From assembly GCA_963924555.1 (NCBI GenBank), contig OZ004588.1, positions 2,914,001-2,978,000 of the forward strand: a stretch of 64,000 nt of DNA. Reading direction: 5' to 3'. The first letter of the stretch is position 1. Each line of letters begins with the position of its first letter. The translations under genes were made by a program, and so were the position numbers. This stretch comes from Crambe crambe (taxonomy: Eukaryota; Porifera; Demospongiae; Poecilosclerida; Crambeidae). Shown here piece after piece: positions 1 through 54,989 of the stretch. The notes beneath the pieces were generated by a model that was not told the DNA's origin, did not search any database, and saw nothing but the letters and a program-made list of their open reading frames with translations.

Positions 1-35
1 ATCTCTATCTAGCAGATGAAATAAGTAAAATATAA
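1..35 (+). CDS. 3' end of an upstream gene X copy (partial)
   Basis: The first 35 bases read in frame as the last codons of the gene X terminal exon (ending ADEISKI, then TAA) and match 54779-54813. The rest of this copy must lie upstream of the window. An AATAAA signal follows at 169-174, as it does after the other copy. The exact match of frame and stop shows that the upstream copy still ends at the same codon. Whether its transmembrane, SRCR and 2A exons are intact cannot be seen here. Confidence 0.7.
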   Translation, partial: LYLADEISKI

Positions 36-168
36 TCGAAATTCATCACTTTATTTGAAGACATAGGGAGTCTTTCTTGAGTAGAGAAAGTGAAACAGAA
101 TTCCAAAAACATGTTAGAGCATCAGCCATATTTCCTTTCAAGAAGCTACAATGAATGAAATCAAAAAG

Positions 169-174
169 AATAAA
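169..174 (+). promoter_or_regulatory. Candidate polyadenylation signal for the upstream gene X
   Basis: AATAAA lies about 135 bases after the stop at 33-35. The same signal is found at 54929-54934 after the complete gene X. Confidence 0.5.
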
Positions 175-229
175 GACAGGGGTTTTTGCAGCTAATTTTT
201 GATCATCAATCTTACATGAATTTTAATTA

Positions 230-48784: not shown

Positions 48785-49425
48785 GTACGTATGATAATCA
48801 TCACTAAATAGCTACACTAGCTGTTGCAAATACAGACTCTTGAGCGGTCAGCACAGTCAAGCAGCTGAAGTTCTAGGGCTCAATAAATTATGCTCCAAAT
48901 TCTCCCTATAATGCTATTCCCTAATTCTCATGCACATAATGCACAAAATTCTTGATCATAGTTTTAAAAAGTTATCTAGCTATAGCTAGTTGTATTGGAG
49001 CATAGAAGTTTAAATATTGTCATCCAAACCAGAAGTTTGCTGGTCTGAAAAGTGAAAAACAAAAAACAAAACAAAAACAAAAAAAAAACAAAAACGAAAC
49101 AAAACAAAGCACTCTGCTGCAGTTGAGGAGGGCTGTACTAACAGAATCTGTCTGCAAGTAACAGACCAATGAGGGAGCTGATTAGCATATTTCTTCCACC
49201 ATTCAAGCTTATCCACTTCAGAAGAAATCACCATCCACTTTTAAGTTGGAAGTTCTAAATCCTCTATTTGATCACTGAAAAAACTTGTTGTAGTCAATTA
49301 GTAAACTTGCAATGAACAGTCTCTGTGACTTAGTAGTGATTGTAATGGCCAAAATGTTCATATCTTAGGCTATTTCAGTCTCCTATCTCTTTATGTTGCA
49401 AAGTTGATGTTTAGCTAGCTAGCTA

Positions 49426-49536
49426 CACTGTAATAATAAATGTGTAAAAACAACCCATTTTTAGGTTATCTGAGTTGCAATTTGCAACTCAGATAACCTA
49501 AAAATGGGTTGTTTTTACACATTAGTTCTTACAGTG
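49426..49536. mobile_element. TA-flanked palindromic MITE with a perfect 42-bp stem
   Basis: 49439-49480 and 49482-49523 are exact reverse complements separated by one base; ends CACTGTAA/TTACAGTG and flanking TA on both sides give the Tc1/mariner MITE layout. Confidence 0.85.
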
Positions 49537-49733
49537 TATAATGTGTAATGATGTCCAAATTCTACTTAAAATGCTAAAAAATGCTGCAGCACACCTAAAA
49601 TGCTCAGAATGCTTCAGTGTGCGTGCACTCATAATGCGCTTAAAAAATGCTGGCACAATTATTAAGGCCTATGAAGTTATTTCGATATCTCAAGATTTTC
49701 ATTGGCAAATTTTAATAGCTAGTTATGTGTAAA

Positions 49734-50662: not shown

Positions 50663-50873
50663 ATGATCAGGTCTGAACTGGTGCAGTTGTGGAAGTCTCG
50701 GGTCCAGTACCTGAGGCAATATTATTGCTTCAATGGCCATAGACCAAAGCAGAGAGGCTACCCCGTCCTTTCCCGCCATGTCTGGTTCATCCCTTTCATT
50801 TTGACTGCATGGTGGTTGTTGATAGCTGTCATCTTTTTATACAAGCTCAAAATGCAGGATTTATTAAACAACG
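50663..50873 (+). CDS. Gene X exon 1 (coding): N-terminus and TM helix
   Basis: The exon begins after TCATTTTAG at 50653, with ATG at 50663 and a GTGAGA donor at 50874 (phase 1). A basic N-terminus (RPKQRG, KSR) precedes WFIPFILTAWWLLIAVIFLY, a TM helix. By the positive-inside rule the N-terminus is cytosolic, so the following SRCR part would be outside: a signal-anchor (type II) start. Confidence 0.68.
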
Positions 50874-53800
50874 GTGAGAATTATGTATAATTTATATTAA
50901 GTGTAATGGATAGTTAACCACTATGAATAAAATTGGTAGAATTACTTTGAAGTGTCTAAATGAGCACCTAAATGAAGTGTCTCTACAAAGATTACCATAT
51001 ACCTTGGTCTGTTCATTACAGAGAGTTAGAATGTGTTGTTATAGTTACTTATAAGTTTGATCTTATTATAACTAGGGTATTTTGACAAGCATTGGGTAGA
51101 CTTTGCCAGTTCCTGATCCTAAGAAAGCAAGCGATTATGTCCTGTCTTGGTGTGTCTAGCTACCAGGTAGCTCTATAGCTATGATGTTCCATTAAATCAC
51201 TTCCTGTGTAAAGCTATAAACTTAACTAGTTGCCTATAGTTAGTAAAATCTGAAGTATTAAAAGTCCATTCTTGGTGGTGTTGTTTACGCAATTAAACTT
51301 TGATGACATTTAGGTTGCACAGAAGGTGATTTCAGACTTGTAAATGGAACTGGTACTGAGGGTTGTGTGGAGATATGTCTCAATGGAACTGTGTGTGACC
51401 AGATGTGGAGTGACACTGATGCCAGTGTGGTCTACAAGCAACTGGGAATGTCATCTACAGGTAGCACTATAACCTAAACTGAATATTTGAGAAGTGGAAA
51501 TGCAAAATAATTAGTCCATAATAAATTATTTAATATTGCATATAAGAGAGAGAGAGAGAGAGCAGTAGCTCTCTCTTACCCCTCCTCCTTAGAAAAAAAA
51601 TAAAGTCAAAAATTATGGTACTCATTATTCATAATGCATTCTATAATTCTACAGTATTGAAAGAAAGACGGAGCTTACATAATTATATTTTTGAACTGGA
51701 TTTTAAAGCTAATAATTTCACATAGCCCTACTCAGACTTGATGATTGTCAAAACTCCAAATTGCATGACTGGGACTTTGTACCCACAACCCAATGCTCCA
51801 TGCTTGCATAAAAAATTCCATCCAGTCTCTGTGATATATTTTTTCTTCTTCATCATCATCTTCTTTTGGCCAACAGCACTATAAGTGTAAATGAACCTAT
51901 AATATAGAGTTGACATCACACTAGCCTGCTGAGCTGTCTGCGTTTAACTTTTCTGAGCATGGCTTAGAAATAGGACATGGGTTATAATTATGATAGCAGC
52001 AAAGTACATAATCTAGTAGTTAGTATTGAGATGGGAAGAATAAACTAAAGTGCTTGTAAATCAGAAACCTTATATTACATCATAGAAAATTTCTTTGAGC
52101 TATTAAATTTTTTTTTTCTACTAATGAGATAAAATTGAAATACTTATACTTAACTCTTTTAATACTCTGTTTTTCTATAGGTGATATCACAAGATACTTG
52201 CTTGCTTTGAACTTCCTGCTGGTATTGTTGTGGTGGAAGCTTGCCATAACTGAATCTGAAGGAACGCTTAGACCTCACCTATATAAAGGCCCCTGTGGTT
52301 CTATGTGCACCAATCACAAGCTTCAATATGGCTGCACTACTGCATACAAGAATGCTTCCATAAACACTTTACCACCCCTTCGTGATGACTGGAAGTGGTA
52401 TCAAAGAAGATCTCTTTTCACTATCCATTATTCTGACCTTCAAGTGTTGGCGCCATTAACATTATTATTGTGTGGTGATATTGAAACTAATCCTGGTCCT
52501 GGTGAGTATGTTACTTTATATTCAGTGTGTATTCAAGCAAGTGTATGTGAATCAAGTGTCTATATACGTACACAGTATGTGGGCTAATAATATACCAGAG
52601 AAAATTAATAGTATTCATGGCCACAAATGGCTGATTTTGTAACCTGATAGCTACTGTATGTCATAATATGCTAGTATGTGCATTGTACTAGACTGTATAT
52701 CAACTATGTGGTAATAATGTACCAACTAAAACTCTTAATGCTATTTCATGTATTCTGAATTCATAATTCGGTGAGTGAGCGTAGCAATCAAGCTGACTCT
52801 GAGGCTAACCCTCAGCGTATGTGCAAGGGTTATAGTATGTGTCGTATGTGTATCTGTTACATCCATTACGAAGCCAGTAGTGGTTATAGTGCTTCAATTT
52901 CAGCATTAACAATGTCTAGACGATACTCTTCAGTGCTTAAATTTTTTGATAAAGGCTTTATTCCTGAAACTATATGTTTGTCGACCATTAGCTACCTACT
53001 CATCTATAGGTGAGCTCTGTGTCTGTGGTACTCATTCATGAGTGTTATGATTTAAATAAATAGACTATTATATAATCATGATGGGTGGAGTTTCATACTG
53101 ATGTTATGATTTTATACATTAGGAGTTAAAGATAGCAATGGTTCAGATAACCATAGTTAGTGTTTAGTAATCAATAGCTTAAAAATTGCCTTAGTACTTC
53201 CACAAATTTCATTGTTAAATTTTTGTGGTCTGTTCAACAATTATTAACCCTGCACTATAAAAAGTAACATGAATTTCCCAATTTACAGTAACTAATTACT
53301 TGGTTTATCTACTAATCAAAATTCCTAGTTCAGAGTTGCTTTACAGCTAGCTATGGAATGACATCTGCTGATGGAGATAGAACGATACTTTTACCTAGAA
53401 ATGAATGAACATAATATGAACAGTTAATGAAGATTCATCTTATTCAGTGAAAAACAAGGTTCACTTCCCTTCCTGCTCCAAAAGAGCTGGATGAGGCTAG
53501 AGTATAGATAGATCTGTTTAATCAGGTATTTTAATGATGGAATCTTTGTTTTCATAGATATCGATGAAAAGACTCTGCTAAGTGAACTAGTTGCAGTGGA
53601 GATCAAGTGGCTTCAAATAGGCATCCAGTTTGGCATCAAAAGAGACCAACTTAAAACATTTGAAGAAAATTACTCTTCCACTTTCAGATGTTTGATGGAA
53701 ACTGTGAGCTATTGGTTGGATGGGAATACAAATGTTCCAGTATCCTGGGAATCTGTACTCACAGTTCTTAATGATCCTTCTGTTGATGAGTCAGGAATAG

Positions 53801-54813
53801 CAAAGCAAATAAAGGAAAAGTACTGCTCCAAGAAAGGTATATTTTTGTGACCACATAATATTTAAAGCTTAGTGCTATACATTAATATGGCATGATATGA
53901 GGGGAATATGGGGAAATATTTAGTTTAAGGCTGGCTGTATTGGCCCAACTGCAGGGAGGGACAATATACAACCCGAGAACTGAATATTATTTTAATACTT
54001 ATTGTACACTCGTGCATTGATATTTCTAGGCCTAGAAGCATCATGAGATAAACTGCTGCAGAATTCAATTAAGCTTAACTATCACCTTCAGAAATTTCAG
54101 CCAATAACTCTACTAGGCTATTCCATGCATGTGTAGCCAAGGTGTTGATAATGCCATTGAATATCATGTGAAAATTAAAACTTCCAGATATACAGAAAAA
54201 GGAAAATGTGTTTCAAGGTTGCATGTGGAGAGGTGGTATGTGACCTCTTTGTCAAATACTTGCCTAGCTAGCAATCAAGTAACAAATTTTAGCTAGAGAT
54301 TAGCCGATTGACAATGCTATTTTCATATTTCATGAATATAGCCTGTTTGCAGAATTCATATGAATTACTACTAACTATAGAAGACATGGCATTTTTTTAA
54401 AAAGCCTTCCCCATTTTTCATCTGTTAACACAAGCCTTTCTCTGAACTATTACTGTTACAAAACTGCTCACTTACTTGATAGCTAACCTTTTCATTGATA
54501 CCAGTTCTCTAGACATTAACACTTCTTGCATGGTGGAAGTGTCAAAACTCTTGATGTAGCTACATCATCTGGTCCAAACTCCAAGATATCATCTGCTAAC
54601 ACAAATCAAAACACTTTTGTGGATGAGCCTGATAGTAGCACTATGAAATCCACTGCTGTCTCTCCATGTGAACCTTCTTTGCATACTCAAAGAGACAGTA
54701 TTACAAAATTATCACAAGGAGATTCGGTTGTGCTATGTACAAAACTACCCAAATGGCCACCAGTGTGTGATAATTATAATCTCTATCTAGCAGATGAAAT
54801 AAGTAAAATATAA
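50663..54813 (+). CDS. Gene X: membrane/half-SRCR protein, 2A-like motif and death domain
   Basis: Coding exons 50663-50873, 51314-51460, 52181-52501, 53558-53836 and 54560-54813 join in frame, all phase 1, to 1212 nt (403 residues and a stop). N-terminus: basic cytoplasmic-type segment, TM helix (about 40-60), half an SRCR domain (71-119), second hydrophobic segment (125-142), then LTLLLCGDIETNPGP with the skip expected between G225 and P226. The death domain starts immediately after (227-319), followed by a Ser/Thr-rich tail. If the 2A-like motif works, one mRNA yields a membrane protein and a separate 178-residue cytosolic death-domain protein. It is followed by gene Y. The 2A and death-domain calls are strong as motifs; splicing and function are predicted. 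Confidence 0.72.
51314..51460 (+). CDS. Gene X exon 2: N-terminal half of an SRCR domain
   Basis: 147 nt, phase 1-1. The pattern FRLVNGTGTEGCVEICLNGT then VCDQMW, TDASVVYKQLG is the first half of a scavenger-receptor cysteine-rich domain. The second half, which normally supplies the remaining cysteines and the WLDDV-like strand, is not found in the 720 bases to the next exon. It is a truncated domain or the missing exon lies elsewhere. Confidence 0.8.
51461..52180 (+). other. Gene X intron 2
   Basis: Contains an AG dinucleotide run (51547-51562). A minus-strand open stretch at 51728-51919 has no recognised domain. No second SRCR half is seen. Confidence 0.5.
52181..52501 (+). CDS. Gene X exon 3: hydrophobic segment and 2A-like motif
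   Basis: 321 nt, phase 1-1, starting GDITRYLLALNFLLVLLWW (possible second TM) and ending at a 2A-like motif: GDIETNPGP fits the D-[VI]-E-x-N-P-G-P consensus. A Cys-containing region (CGSMCTN, YGC) and hydrophobic LAPLTLLLC precede it. The donor GTGAGT follows one base after the final Pro codon, so the motif is exactly at the exon end. 2A-like motifs are known at the N-terminus of some non-LTR retrotransposon proteins and of some sea urchin NLR-type proteins; the exon may derive from such an element (inference). Confidence 0.78.
52502..53557 (+). other. Gene X intron 3
   Basis: An open stretch at 52771-53013 begins in sequence resembling the arms of the long-inverted-repeat family (GTGAGTGAGCG, AGCTGACTCTGAGG); it has no recognised domain. 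The rest is AT-rich without support for an exon. Confidence 0.45.
53558..53836 (+). CDS. Gene X exon 4: death domain
   Basis: 279 nt, phase 1-1, between TTCATAG and GTATAT. Death-fold pattern: LLSELVAVEIKWLQIGIQFG (helices 1-2), RDQLKTFEENY, LMETVSYWLDG (helix 4), VSWESVLTVLND (helix 5 with Trp), ESGIAKQIKEKYC (helix 6). Spliced to exon 3 it begins two residues after the 2A glycine, so the released product would be Pro followed by this domain. Similar to gene Y exon 7 in helix 5. Confidence 0.82.
53837..54559 (+). other. Gene X intron 4
   Basis: AT-rich, no clear element. Some splice alternatives near 54513 end in an early stop. Confidence 0.5.
54560..54813 (+). CDS. Gene X exon 5: Ser/Thr-rich tail and stop
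   Basis: Starts after GATGTAG in phase 1 (matching the preceding exon) and ends with TAA at 54813. The tail (ATSSGPNSKISSANTNQNTF and on to ADEISKI) is polar and probably disordered, with many potential phosphorylation sites. The same end lies at 1-35. Other acceptors upstream (54505, 54513) bring in stops. Confidence 0.6.
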
Positions 54814-54928
54814 TCGAAATTCATCACTTTATTTGAAGACATAGGGAGTCTTTCTTGAGTAGAGAAAGTGAAACAGAATTCCAAAAGCATCAGCCATATT
54901 TCCTTTCAAGAAAGCTACAATGAAAAAG

Positions 54929-54934
54929 AATAAA
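54929..54934 (+). promoter_or_regulatory. Candidate polyadenylation signal of gene X
   Basis: AATAAA about 115 bases after the stop, conserved at 169-174. Confidence 0.5.
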
Positions 54935-54989
54935 GACAGGAGTTTTTGCAGCTAATTTTTGATCATCAATCTTACATGAATTTTAATTA

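What the first reader, a model, noticed from the sequence alone, without database searches (positions are those of the whole stretch)
52181..53836. 2A-like ribosome-skipping motif placed exactly between a membrane/SRCR half and a death domain
Exon 3 of gene X ends LLLCGDIETNPGP, a full match to the D-[VI]-E-x-N-P-G-P consensus. After the predicted splice, the death domain begins one residue after the final Pro. A working motif would make two proteins from one mRNA in equal amounts: a membrane protein with half an SRCR domain, and a free cytosolic death-domain protein with a Ser/Thr tail. 2A-like motifs are known mainly in viruses, some retrotransposons and some sea urchin NLR-type proteins; a receptor/adaptor pair joined this way would be unusual.
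Basis: partly seen in the sequence, partly recalled or inferred. Interest (0 to 1): 0.92.

Follow-up and report, generated by a model that had tools for sequence, protein, structure and literature searches.

The report
Ribosome-skipping exon before death domain
This genome has a large set of genes in which a membrane-leader exon ends in a virus-like ribosome-skipping (2A) motif just before an exon for a death domain, so that one mRNA probably yields a membrane piece and a separate cell-death signalling protein; the gene in the window is one copy among dozens.

Summary
Exon 3 (52181-52501) ends LTLLLCG-DIETNPGP at a phase-1 donor; splicing to 53558 puts a death domain directly after the final Pro. 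It is not a one-off. The 2A-core DNA pattern occurs 208 times in the own genome, against 0 for the reversed pattern. Exon 3 has 81 matches there; 29 of 29 full-length copies fetched without regard to the motif keep it, as the slowest-evolving stretch of the exon. The fetched leaders form 16 sequence clusters, and 83 of 84 loci have the L-rich (S/A/C)G lead-in known from active 2A sites. Strict GTRAG donors after the motif are phase 1 at 57 of 57 sites; best acceptors before death domains at 39 of 39. Listed death-domain hits lie within 1.5 kb downstream, same strand, at 28 of 200 sites; none lie upstream or antisense. No link to reverse transcriptases was seen. Nearest known: sea-urchin NLR 2A leaders (PMC4981915). 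Corrections: the SRCR half-exon is optional, the Ser/Thr tail is a shortened exon, and equal output and skipping itself are unproven.

The parts
50663..50873 (+). Exon 1: basic N-terminus and first hydrophobic (transmembrane-like) stretch (about 50783-50845); ends in phase 1
   Evidence: found in 25 of 84 fetched 2A loci (short flanks miss it in others)
51314..51460 (+). Exon 2: half SRCR domain with two N-G-T sequons; symmetric 1-1 exon, present only in a subgroup
   Evidence: PF00530 25.0 bits, profile 7-44/100; 17 of 84 loci
52181..52501 (+). Exon 3: second hydrophobic stretch (about 52195-52245), Cys-containing spacer, 2A motif at its end; symmetric 1-1 exon
   Evidence: 81 matches in own genome, itself included
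52456..52476 (+). LTLLLCG, the LLLLSG-like context just upstream of the 2A core
   Evidence: context class described in PMC12846837 section 10
52477..52500 (+). 2A / StopGo core DIETNPGP; predicted skipped bond between the last Gly and Pro
53558..53836 (+). Exon 4: death domain, starting directly after the 2A Pro; symmetric 1-1 exon
54560..54813 (+). Exon 5: Ser/Thr-rich tail and stop; shortened compared with paralog P0001; acceptor chosen by frame
54814..54987 (+). Decayed continuation of exon 5 with in-frame stops, similar to P0001 up to its residue 169

Best explanation
The gene belongs to a large host gene family that carries a modular '2A-leader' exon. Translation first makes a membrane-anchored leader (residues 1-225). 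The nascent peptide ...TLLLCG-DIETNPG in the exit tunnel makes the ribosome skip the Gly-Pro bond in most rounds and releases the leader. The same ribosome then makes a second protein (residues 226-403, starting Pro-Asp) that is a free death-domain adaptor; in other 2A genes of this genome the death domain is followed by more modules, for example NACHT. Rounds in which the bond forms give a leader-death fusion. So one mRNA would yield a tethered and a free form of a death-domain signalling protein, in a ratio set by the 2A context. Shown: motif, exon layout, splice-phase fit, conservation, death fold (predicted), genome-wide polarity. Inferred: transcription, splicing, skipping, membrane topology, and an immune or cell-death role.
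For: 208 core matches genome-wide vs 0 for the reversed pattern. 29 of 29 full-length exon copies fetched by exon homology keep D(V/I)ExNPGP, and the motif window has the lowest pN of 104 windows (0.012 vs 0.159 for the rest) although synonymous changes occur there. 79 of 81 exon matches hold the motif in place (78, plus C21:4397269). 83 of 84 loci have an L-rich lead-in ending (S/A/C)G; in PMC12846837 a viral example of the L-rich motif 6 was active in vitro. 81 leaders form 16 clusters. Over 78 distinct sites, strict GTRAG donors are phase 1 in 57 of 57 found; with a wider donor pattern 75 of 76 found. Best acceptors are phase 1 in 39 of 39 distinct cases. A death profile made from 9 exons of the window family hits 40 of 84 loci (38 sites) among 2574 ORFs of both strands, always downstream on the same strand. 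The family profile matches FADD, PIDD and RIPK1 chains.
Against: No RNA or protein data. Many 2A exons are related, so part of the agreement is common descent. The window copy has a shortened, decayed tail and could be a declining paralog. A sequon between the second hydrophobic stretch and the 2A is kept in 27 of 28 unique copies, which fits poorly with a cytosolic spacer, so topology is open. For 155 of 200 listed sites no listed death-domain hit lies within 15 kb downstream; the hit lists were capped, but some sites do lead to PDZ or Ig exons. One site has its nearest donor in another phase and two have none matching even the wider pattern. One locus (L040) lacks the L-rich lead-in because an insertion splits the exon. 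Activity of the context rests on other organisms' assays.
Confidence: 0.75

Rival explanations
1. The 2A exon acts mainly as a dual-targeting leader as in sea urchin: the fused product enters the secretory route or membrane, the skipped product is cytosolic, and the upstream piece has no function beyond carrying the 2A.
For: Several leaders end in one strongly hydrophobic stretch right at the 2A (for example L010, L012, L066). Sea-urchin NLR 2A leaders work this way in mammalian and plant cells (PMC4981915: abstract, passages, assay section and discussion seen). L075 has leader-2A-Death-NACHT, and its unnamed near relative P0010 continues with what I read as LRRs.
Against: In the window family the upstream half is about 225 aa over several exons, with pN/pS about 0.5 in exon 3 outside the motif, more than a simple signal would need.
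Confidence: 0.35
2. The exon is derived from a retrotransposon or viral 2A and is still mobile or a passive relic.
For: 2A of this context class is common in viruses and 2A is known in APE-type non-LTR retrotransposons (Odon 2013, seen only as a cited title). Many copies exist.
Against: RVT_1 hits: 0 of 200 sites within 1.5 kb in any direction; within 6 kb 1 site each downstream and upstream on the same strand and 1 each on the other (143 of 150 listed places used, of 801 candidates, so capped). Copies sit in local arrays with the same phase-1 borders and the motif is under protein-level constraint. A remote origin from such an element is not excluded.
Confidence: 0.08
3. The motif is conserved only as part of a hydrophobic or structural segment and skipping is weak or absent; the product is one membrane-bound death-domain receptor.
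For: No translation data here. Sponge NLRs with transmembrane domains have been called putatively membrane-bound (PMC12909245, passages seen).
Against: The core residues are those that define StopGo, are the most constrained of the exon, and recur behind leaders of 16 clusters with the active-type context.
Confidence: 0.12
4. The window copy itself is a pseudogene or untranscribed, whatever its relatives do.
For: Exon 5 is cut short and followed by decayed similar sequence; the tail at window 3-227 shows the same kind of shortened form.
Against: Exons 1-4 are intact with good splice sites, and close copies also keep intact 2A and death exons.
Confidence: 0.25

Closest known systems
Sea-urchin NLR N-terminal 2A-like signal sequences (Roulston et al. 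2016, PMC4981915)
   Same: Host immune-type genes; a 2A with hydrophobic lead-in ahead of a death-domain protein; many paralogs (85 of 241 NLRs stated there). L075 here has the same order: leader, 2A, Death, NACHT.
   Different: There a 26-aa leader at the N-terminus of NLRs. Here the window family has a long membrane half, sometimes with an SRCR piece; 16 leader clusters; the 2A lies at the end of an exon with a phase-1 border; Death without NACHT in the exons seen, and Roc, PDZ and Ig downstream of other leaders.
Viral StopGo/2A elements (Li et al. 2026, PMC12846837; significance, sections 9-10 and passages seen)
   Same: D(V/I)ExNPGP core, Gly before Asp, LLLLSG-like upstream hexapeptide.
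   Different: Intron-bearing host-type genes; the motif ends within about 28 nt of the donor. [quoted passage not shown]
2A in APE-type non-LTR retrotransposons (Odon 2013; seen only as a cited title; not held)
   Same: 2A motif in animal genomes.
   Different: No reverse-transcriptase neighbourhood here.
Survey of eukaryotic and viral 2A sequences (Rao 2025, Cell Reports; seen only as a citation and one describing passage)
   Same: Profile search for 2A in cellular proteomes.
   Different: Not held; it may already list some of these genes.

Membership tests
StopGo/2A elements | Core D(V/I)ExNPGP | tested here: met
   DIETNPGP at 52477-52500
StopGo/2A elements | Known active upstream context | tested here: met
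   TLLLCG before the core: L-rich, ending (A/S/C)G as described for motifs 2/6 in PMC12846837; judged by eye and a simple pattern, not with their models
StopGo/2A elements | In-frame coding sequence on both sides in one mRNA | tested here: inconclusive
   Frame and splice phases fit; no transcript
StopGo/2A elements | Skipping of the Gly-Pro bond | not testable with these tools
   needs a translation assay
Sea-urchin-type NLR 2A leaders | 2A in the N-terminal region before Death-NACHT-LRR | tested here: not met
   Window gene: no NACHT in exons 1-5. Another gene, L075, has 2A then Death and NACHT; LRRs only by eye in its relative P0010
Sea-urchin-type NLR 2A leaders | 2A segment doubles as a short N-terminal signal sequence | tested here: not met
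   In the window gene 218 residues precede the core
Non-LTR retrotransposon 2A | Endonuclease/reverse transcriptase downstream | tested here: not met
   (capped list); no RT hit in the ORFs scanned
Death domain | Helical death fold and profile match | tested here: met
   AF2 pLDDT 95.7, five helices of 4 or more residues by DSSP; family profile to FADD 6.5e-7; 10 of 18 family members hit PF00531 at E 0.1, the window exon itself does not
SRCR domain | Complete domain over the cut-off | tested here: not met
   25.0 of 26.1 bits, profile 7-44 of 100

The most novel reading that the evidence does not exclude
A genome-wide, exon-based translational switch: interchangeable leader exons ending in 2A, all with phase-1 borders, are plugged in front of death-domain exons in many gene families, so that the ribosome itself sets the ratio of membrane-tethered to free death-domain signalling proteins, perhaps tuned by translational stress. 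The same order (leader, 2A, Death, NACHT) here and in sea urchin would make it an ancient or repeatedly evolved animal device, and NLRs called membrane-bound because of a transmembrane stretch may really be made as two separate proteins.
Probability: 0.4. Interest if true: 0.92.

Novelty: new variant of a known kind. Interest (0 to 1): 0.8.

Why it matters
StopGo is described as rare in cellular genes (PMC12846837). Here it appears as a repeatedly used exon type ahead of death-domain exons in host-type gene families. If it works, it is a natural system for co-translational control of tethered versus free signalling protein, a test bed for the published idea that stress acts through 2A sites (PMC4981915), and a reason to re-read 'membrane-bound' NLR predictions in early animals.

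Tried and rejected
Single-gene oddity: rejected, 81 exon matches and 208 motif sites. Chance motif: rejected. Retrotransposon cargo: not supported (7 RVT_1 places on small contigs were left out). A kinase-like fold in the long paralog P0001 was my own reading of the sequence; no Pfam hit and a poor model (pLDDT 43.5), so dropped. pN/pS on motif-selected copies (motif 0.066) is biased by that selection; the set, fetched by exon similarity, is used instead.

Protein searches returned only unnamed ENA records, which look like the same or a very close genome, so no other species could be compared. Paper searches showed me no paper on 2A in sponges or on 2A before death domains other than the sea-urchin NLR work; I judged most hits by listing only, and the two papers were not opened. 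Rao 2025 and Odon 2013 are not held.

Limits of the counts: searches list 200 of 208 sites. The death-domain lists hold 150 scored of 965 and 150 of 561 candidates. The 84 loci are 78 distinct sites (L001/L068, L022/L051, L026/L057, L027/L042, L030/L058 and L047/L064 are pairs). Loci hold about 120 kb upstream and 146 kb downstream of the motif in all. In one search three leaders shorter than 20 aa after trimming (L040, L074, L084) were left out; its wider donor pattern was set, and all 78 donors it found are phase 1; counted over distinct sites with the short leaders back in, 75 of 76 are. In one search acceptors are the best by a simple pyrimidine score; 50 hits, 11 duplicates removed, none without a candidate. 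One search was given 92 of the 200 sites.
Full report
What was claimed and what is there. The sequence confirms it. The motif DNA pattern is found once in the window at 52477-52499, and in none of 100 dinucleotide shuffles. A five-exon model reads without a stop as 403 aa: 50663-50873, 51314-51460, 52181-52501, 53558-53836, 54560-54813. All four introns are phase 1, so exons 2, 3 and 4 are symmetric. The join reads ...LAPLTLLLCG-DIETNPG-P-DIDEKTLLSEL..., giving a predicted upstream product of 225 residues and a downstream product of 178 residues starting with Pro.

The death exon. Alone it gets no Pfam Death hit. Its alignment with 17 relatives (A1) gives a profile that finds FADD (6.5e-7), PIDD, RIPK1 and other death-domain chains; a few unrelated chains such as MuB also appear at weaker scores. 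Ten of the 18 members hit PF00531 at E up to 0.1. The model has mean pLDDT 95.7 and pTM 0.86. Foldseek lists p84, TNFR1, FADD, DR3 and ankyrin death domains first, with probability mostly above 0.9 and TM about 0.55-0.77, though the E-values are 0.06 or worse.

It is one copy of a gene family. Exon 3 has 81 protein-level matches in the own genome, itself included, none with a stop inside. Many lie in local arrays on large contigs. The motif is in place in 79 of 81: 78, and C21:4397269, which lies beyond the cut list but shows it. One exception is an exon split by an insertion just before the motif (L040), the other a partial match (C11:7085906, not looked into). In 30 loci fetched by exon similarity and not by motif, 29 are full length and 29 of 29 end D(V/I)ExNPGP. 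Of 104 eight-codon windows the motif has the lowest amino-acid change (pN 0.012; rest of the exon 0.159), while synonymous change occurs there (0.16; rest 0.33).

It is a genome-wide exon type. The 2A core pattern occurs 208 times in the 143-Mb genome (91 forward, 117 reverse), and the reversed pattern 0 times. The 84 fetched loci are 78 distinct sites. Of these loci, 81 leaders of at least 20 aa fall into 16 BLAST clusters; some clusters may still be remotely related. In 83 of 84 loci the core is preceded by a hydrophobic, mostly L-rich stretch ending (S/A/C)G; the exception is the split exon of L040. This is the 'LLLLSG-like' context of viral StopGo; Li et al. report that all four upstream motif classes they tested, one of them the L-rich motif 6, supported activity in vitro. 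Codons of the core differ between clusters, so the constraint is on the peptide. Strict GTRAG donors within 36 nt after the motif were found at 57 of 78 sites, all phase 1; a wider donor pattern, set after seeing the data, finds 76, of which 75 are phase 1. The best-scoring acceptor before each downstream death domain is phase 1 in 39 of 39 distinct cases. In-frame splicing of leader to death domain therefore looks built in.

What lies downstream. For the 200 listed sites, listed death-domain hits within 1.5 kb are downstream on the same strand at 28 sites, and at 0 sites upstream or on the other strand; within 15 kb the figures are 45 downstream and 13 upstream on the same strand, 1 and 1 on the other. 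A profile made only from 9 death exons of the window family, run against 2574 ORFs of both strands of all 84 loci, hits 40 loci (38 sites), all downstream on the same strand; 14 of the 40 loci outside the exon-3 family are among them. Single ORFs add detail: Death (weak, 14 bits) plus NACHT in L075, whose death part also scores with the family profile and whose unnamed close relative P0010 carries PF05729 and then what I read as LRRs; Roc in L081; PDZ in L082; Ig in L068. NACHT hits within 3 kb are downstream on the same strand at 3 of 200 sites and upstream at 0; within 6 kb 5 and 1. Reverse transcriptases show no link.

The window copy in its family. Exon 1 is found in 25 of 84 loci and the SRCR half-exon in 17 (16 sites, on C11, C10 and one C5 place). 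In L064, exon 1 and the 2A exon are present and the SRCR exon was not found. The tail exon is cut short: paralog P0001 continues to 574 aa, the window is similar only up to its residue 169, with stops from 54811 on, and the tail at window 3-227 shows the same kind of shortened form. So the 'Ser/Thr tail' is what remains of a longer exon, and this copy could be a specialised short adaptor or a declining gene.

How it most likely works. Exon 1 has many basic residues before its hydrophobic stretch, and exon 3 a second hydrophobic stretch; the SRCR piece between them carries two sequons. The simplest topology (my reading, no topology program was run) is a hairpin with both ends in the cytosol, so that the death domain is cytosolic whether or not the bond is skipped, and the 2A sets tethered versus free. 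Against this, a sequon between the second stretch and the 2A is kept in 27 of 28 unique copies, which would suit a lumenal spacer and the sea-urchin scheme in which only the skipped product is cytosolic. This is left open.

Comparison. Roulston et al. 2016 (abstract, passages, recoding assay section and discussion seen) show 2A-like leaders on sea-urchin NLRs, qualitatively about 80% active in vitro for the one tested, that act as signal sequences when not skipped. L075 has the same order. The window family may work like this but is not a member by layout: it has a long membrane half and no NACHT follows in the exons found. Li et al. 2026 (significance, sections 9-10 and passages seen; [quoted passage not shown] A Dysidea avara NLR paper (passages only) holds neither NPGP nor 2A-like in its main text and reports transmembrane NLRs. 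I found no paper on 2A in sponges or on 2A with death domains beyond the sea-urchin work, but Rao 2025 is not held, so priority cannot be judged.

Verdict. Real, not chance, not a retroelement by the test made, and larger than reported: a new variant of the host 2A-leader kind. Skipping, expression and the organism's identity remain to be shown.

Noticed in passing
window 3-227: Tail of what is probably the preceding gene copy (2A exon at C11:2910965, death exon at C11:2912320), with a shortened end and frame breaks like the window gene's tail.
   Followed up: partly
window 49424-49538: Inverted repeat of two 57-nt arms, 95% complementary, 1 nt apart, like a small foldback element.
   Followed up: partly
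L040 (C11:2665928-2666744): A 2A exon interrupted right before the motif by an insertion; LCG is repeated on the far side, like a target-site duplication.
   Followed up: partly
exon 3 family, spacer between second hydrophobic stretch and 2A: N-x-S sequon kept in 27 of 28 unique copies, unexplained under a cytosolic topology.
   Followed up: partly
L062, L067, L069, L070, L071 and P0001: A shared region after the death domain, poorly known: aligned; no convincing Pfam hit in the members scanned (L062, L067, L071, P0001). Found behind several 2A leader types.
   Followed up: partly
L082 (C5:9226800-9229400): A 2A leader followed by PDZ exons instead of a death domain in the stretch held.
   Followed up: no
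L013 (C3:8137480-8140502): Long repetitive frame (GGGQMMGGQRQ...) downstream of a 2A-Death gene.
   Followed up: no
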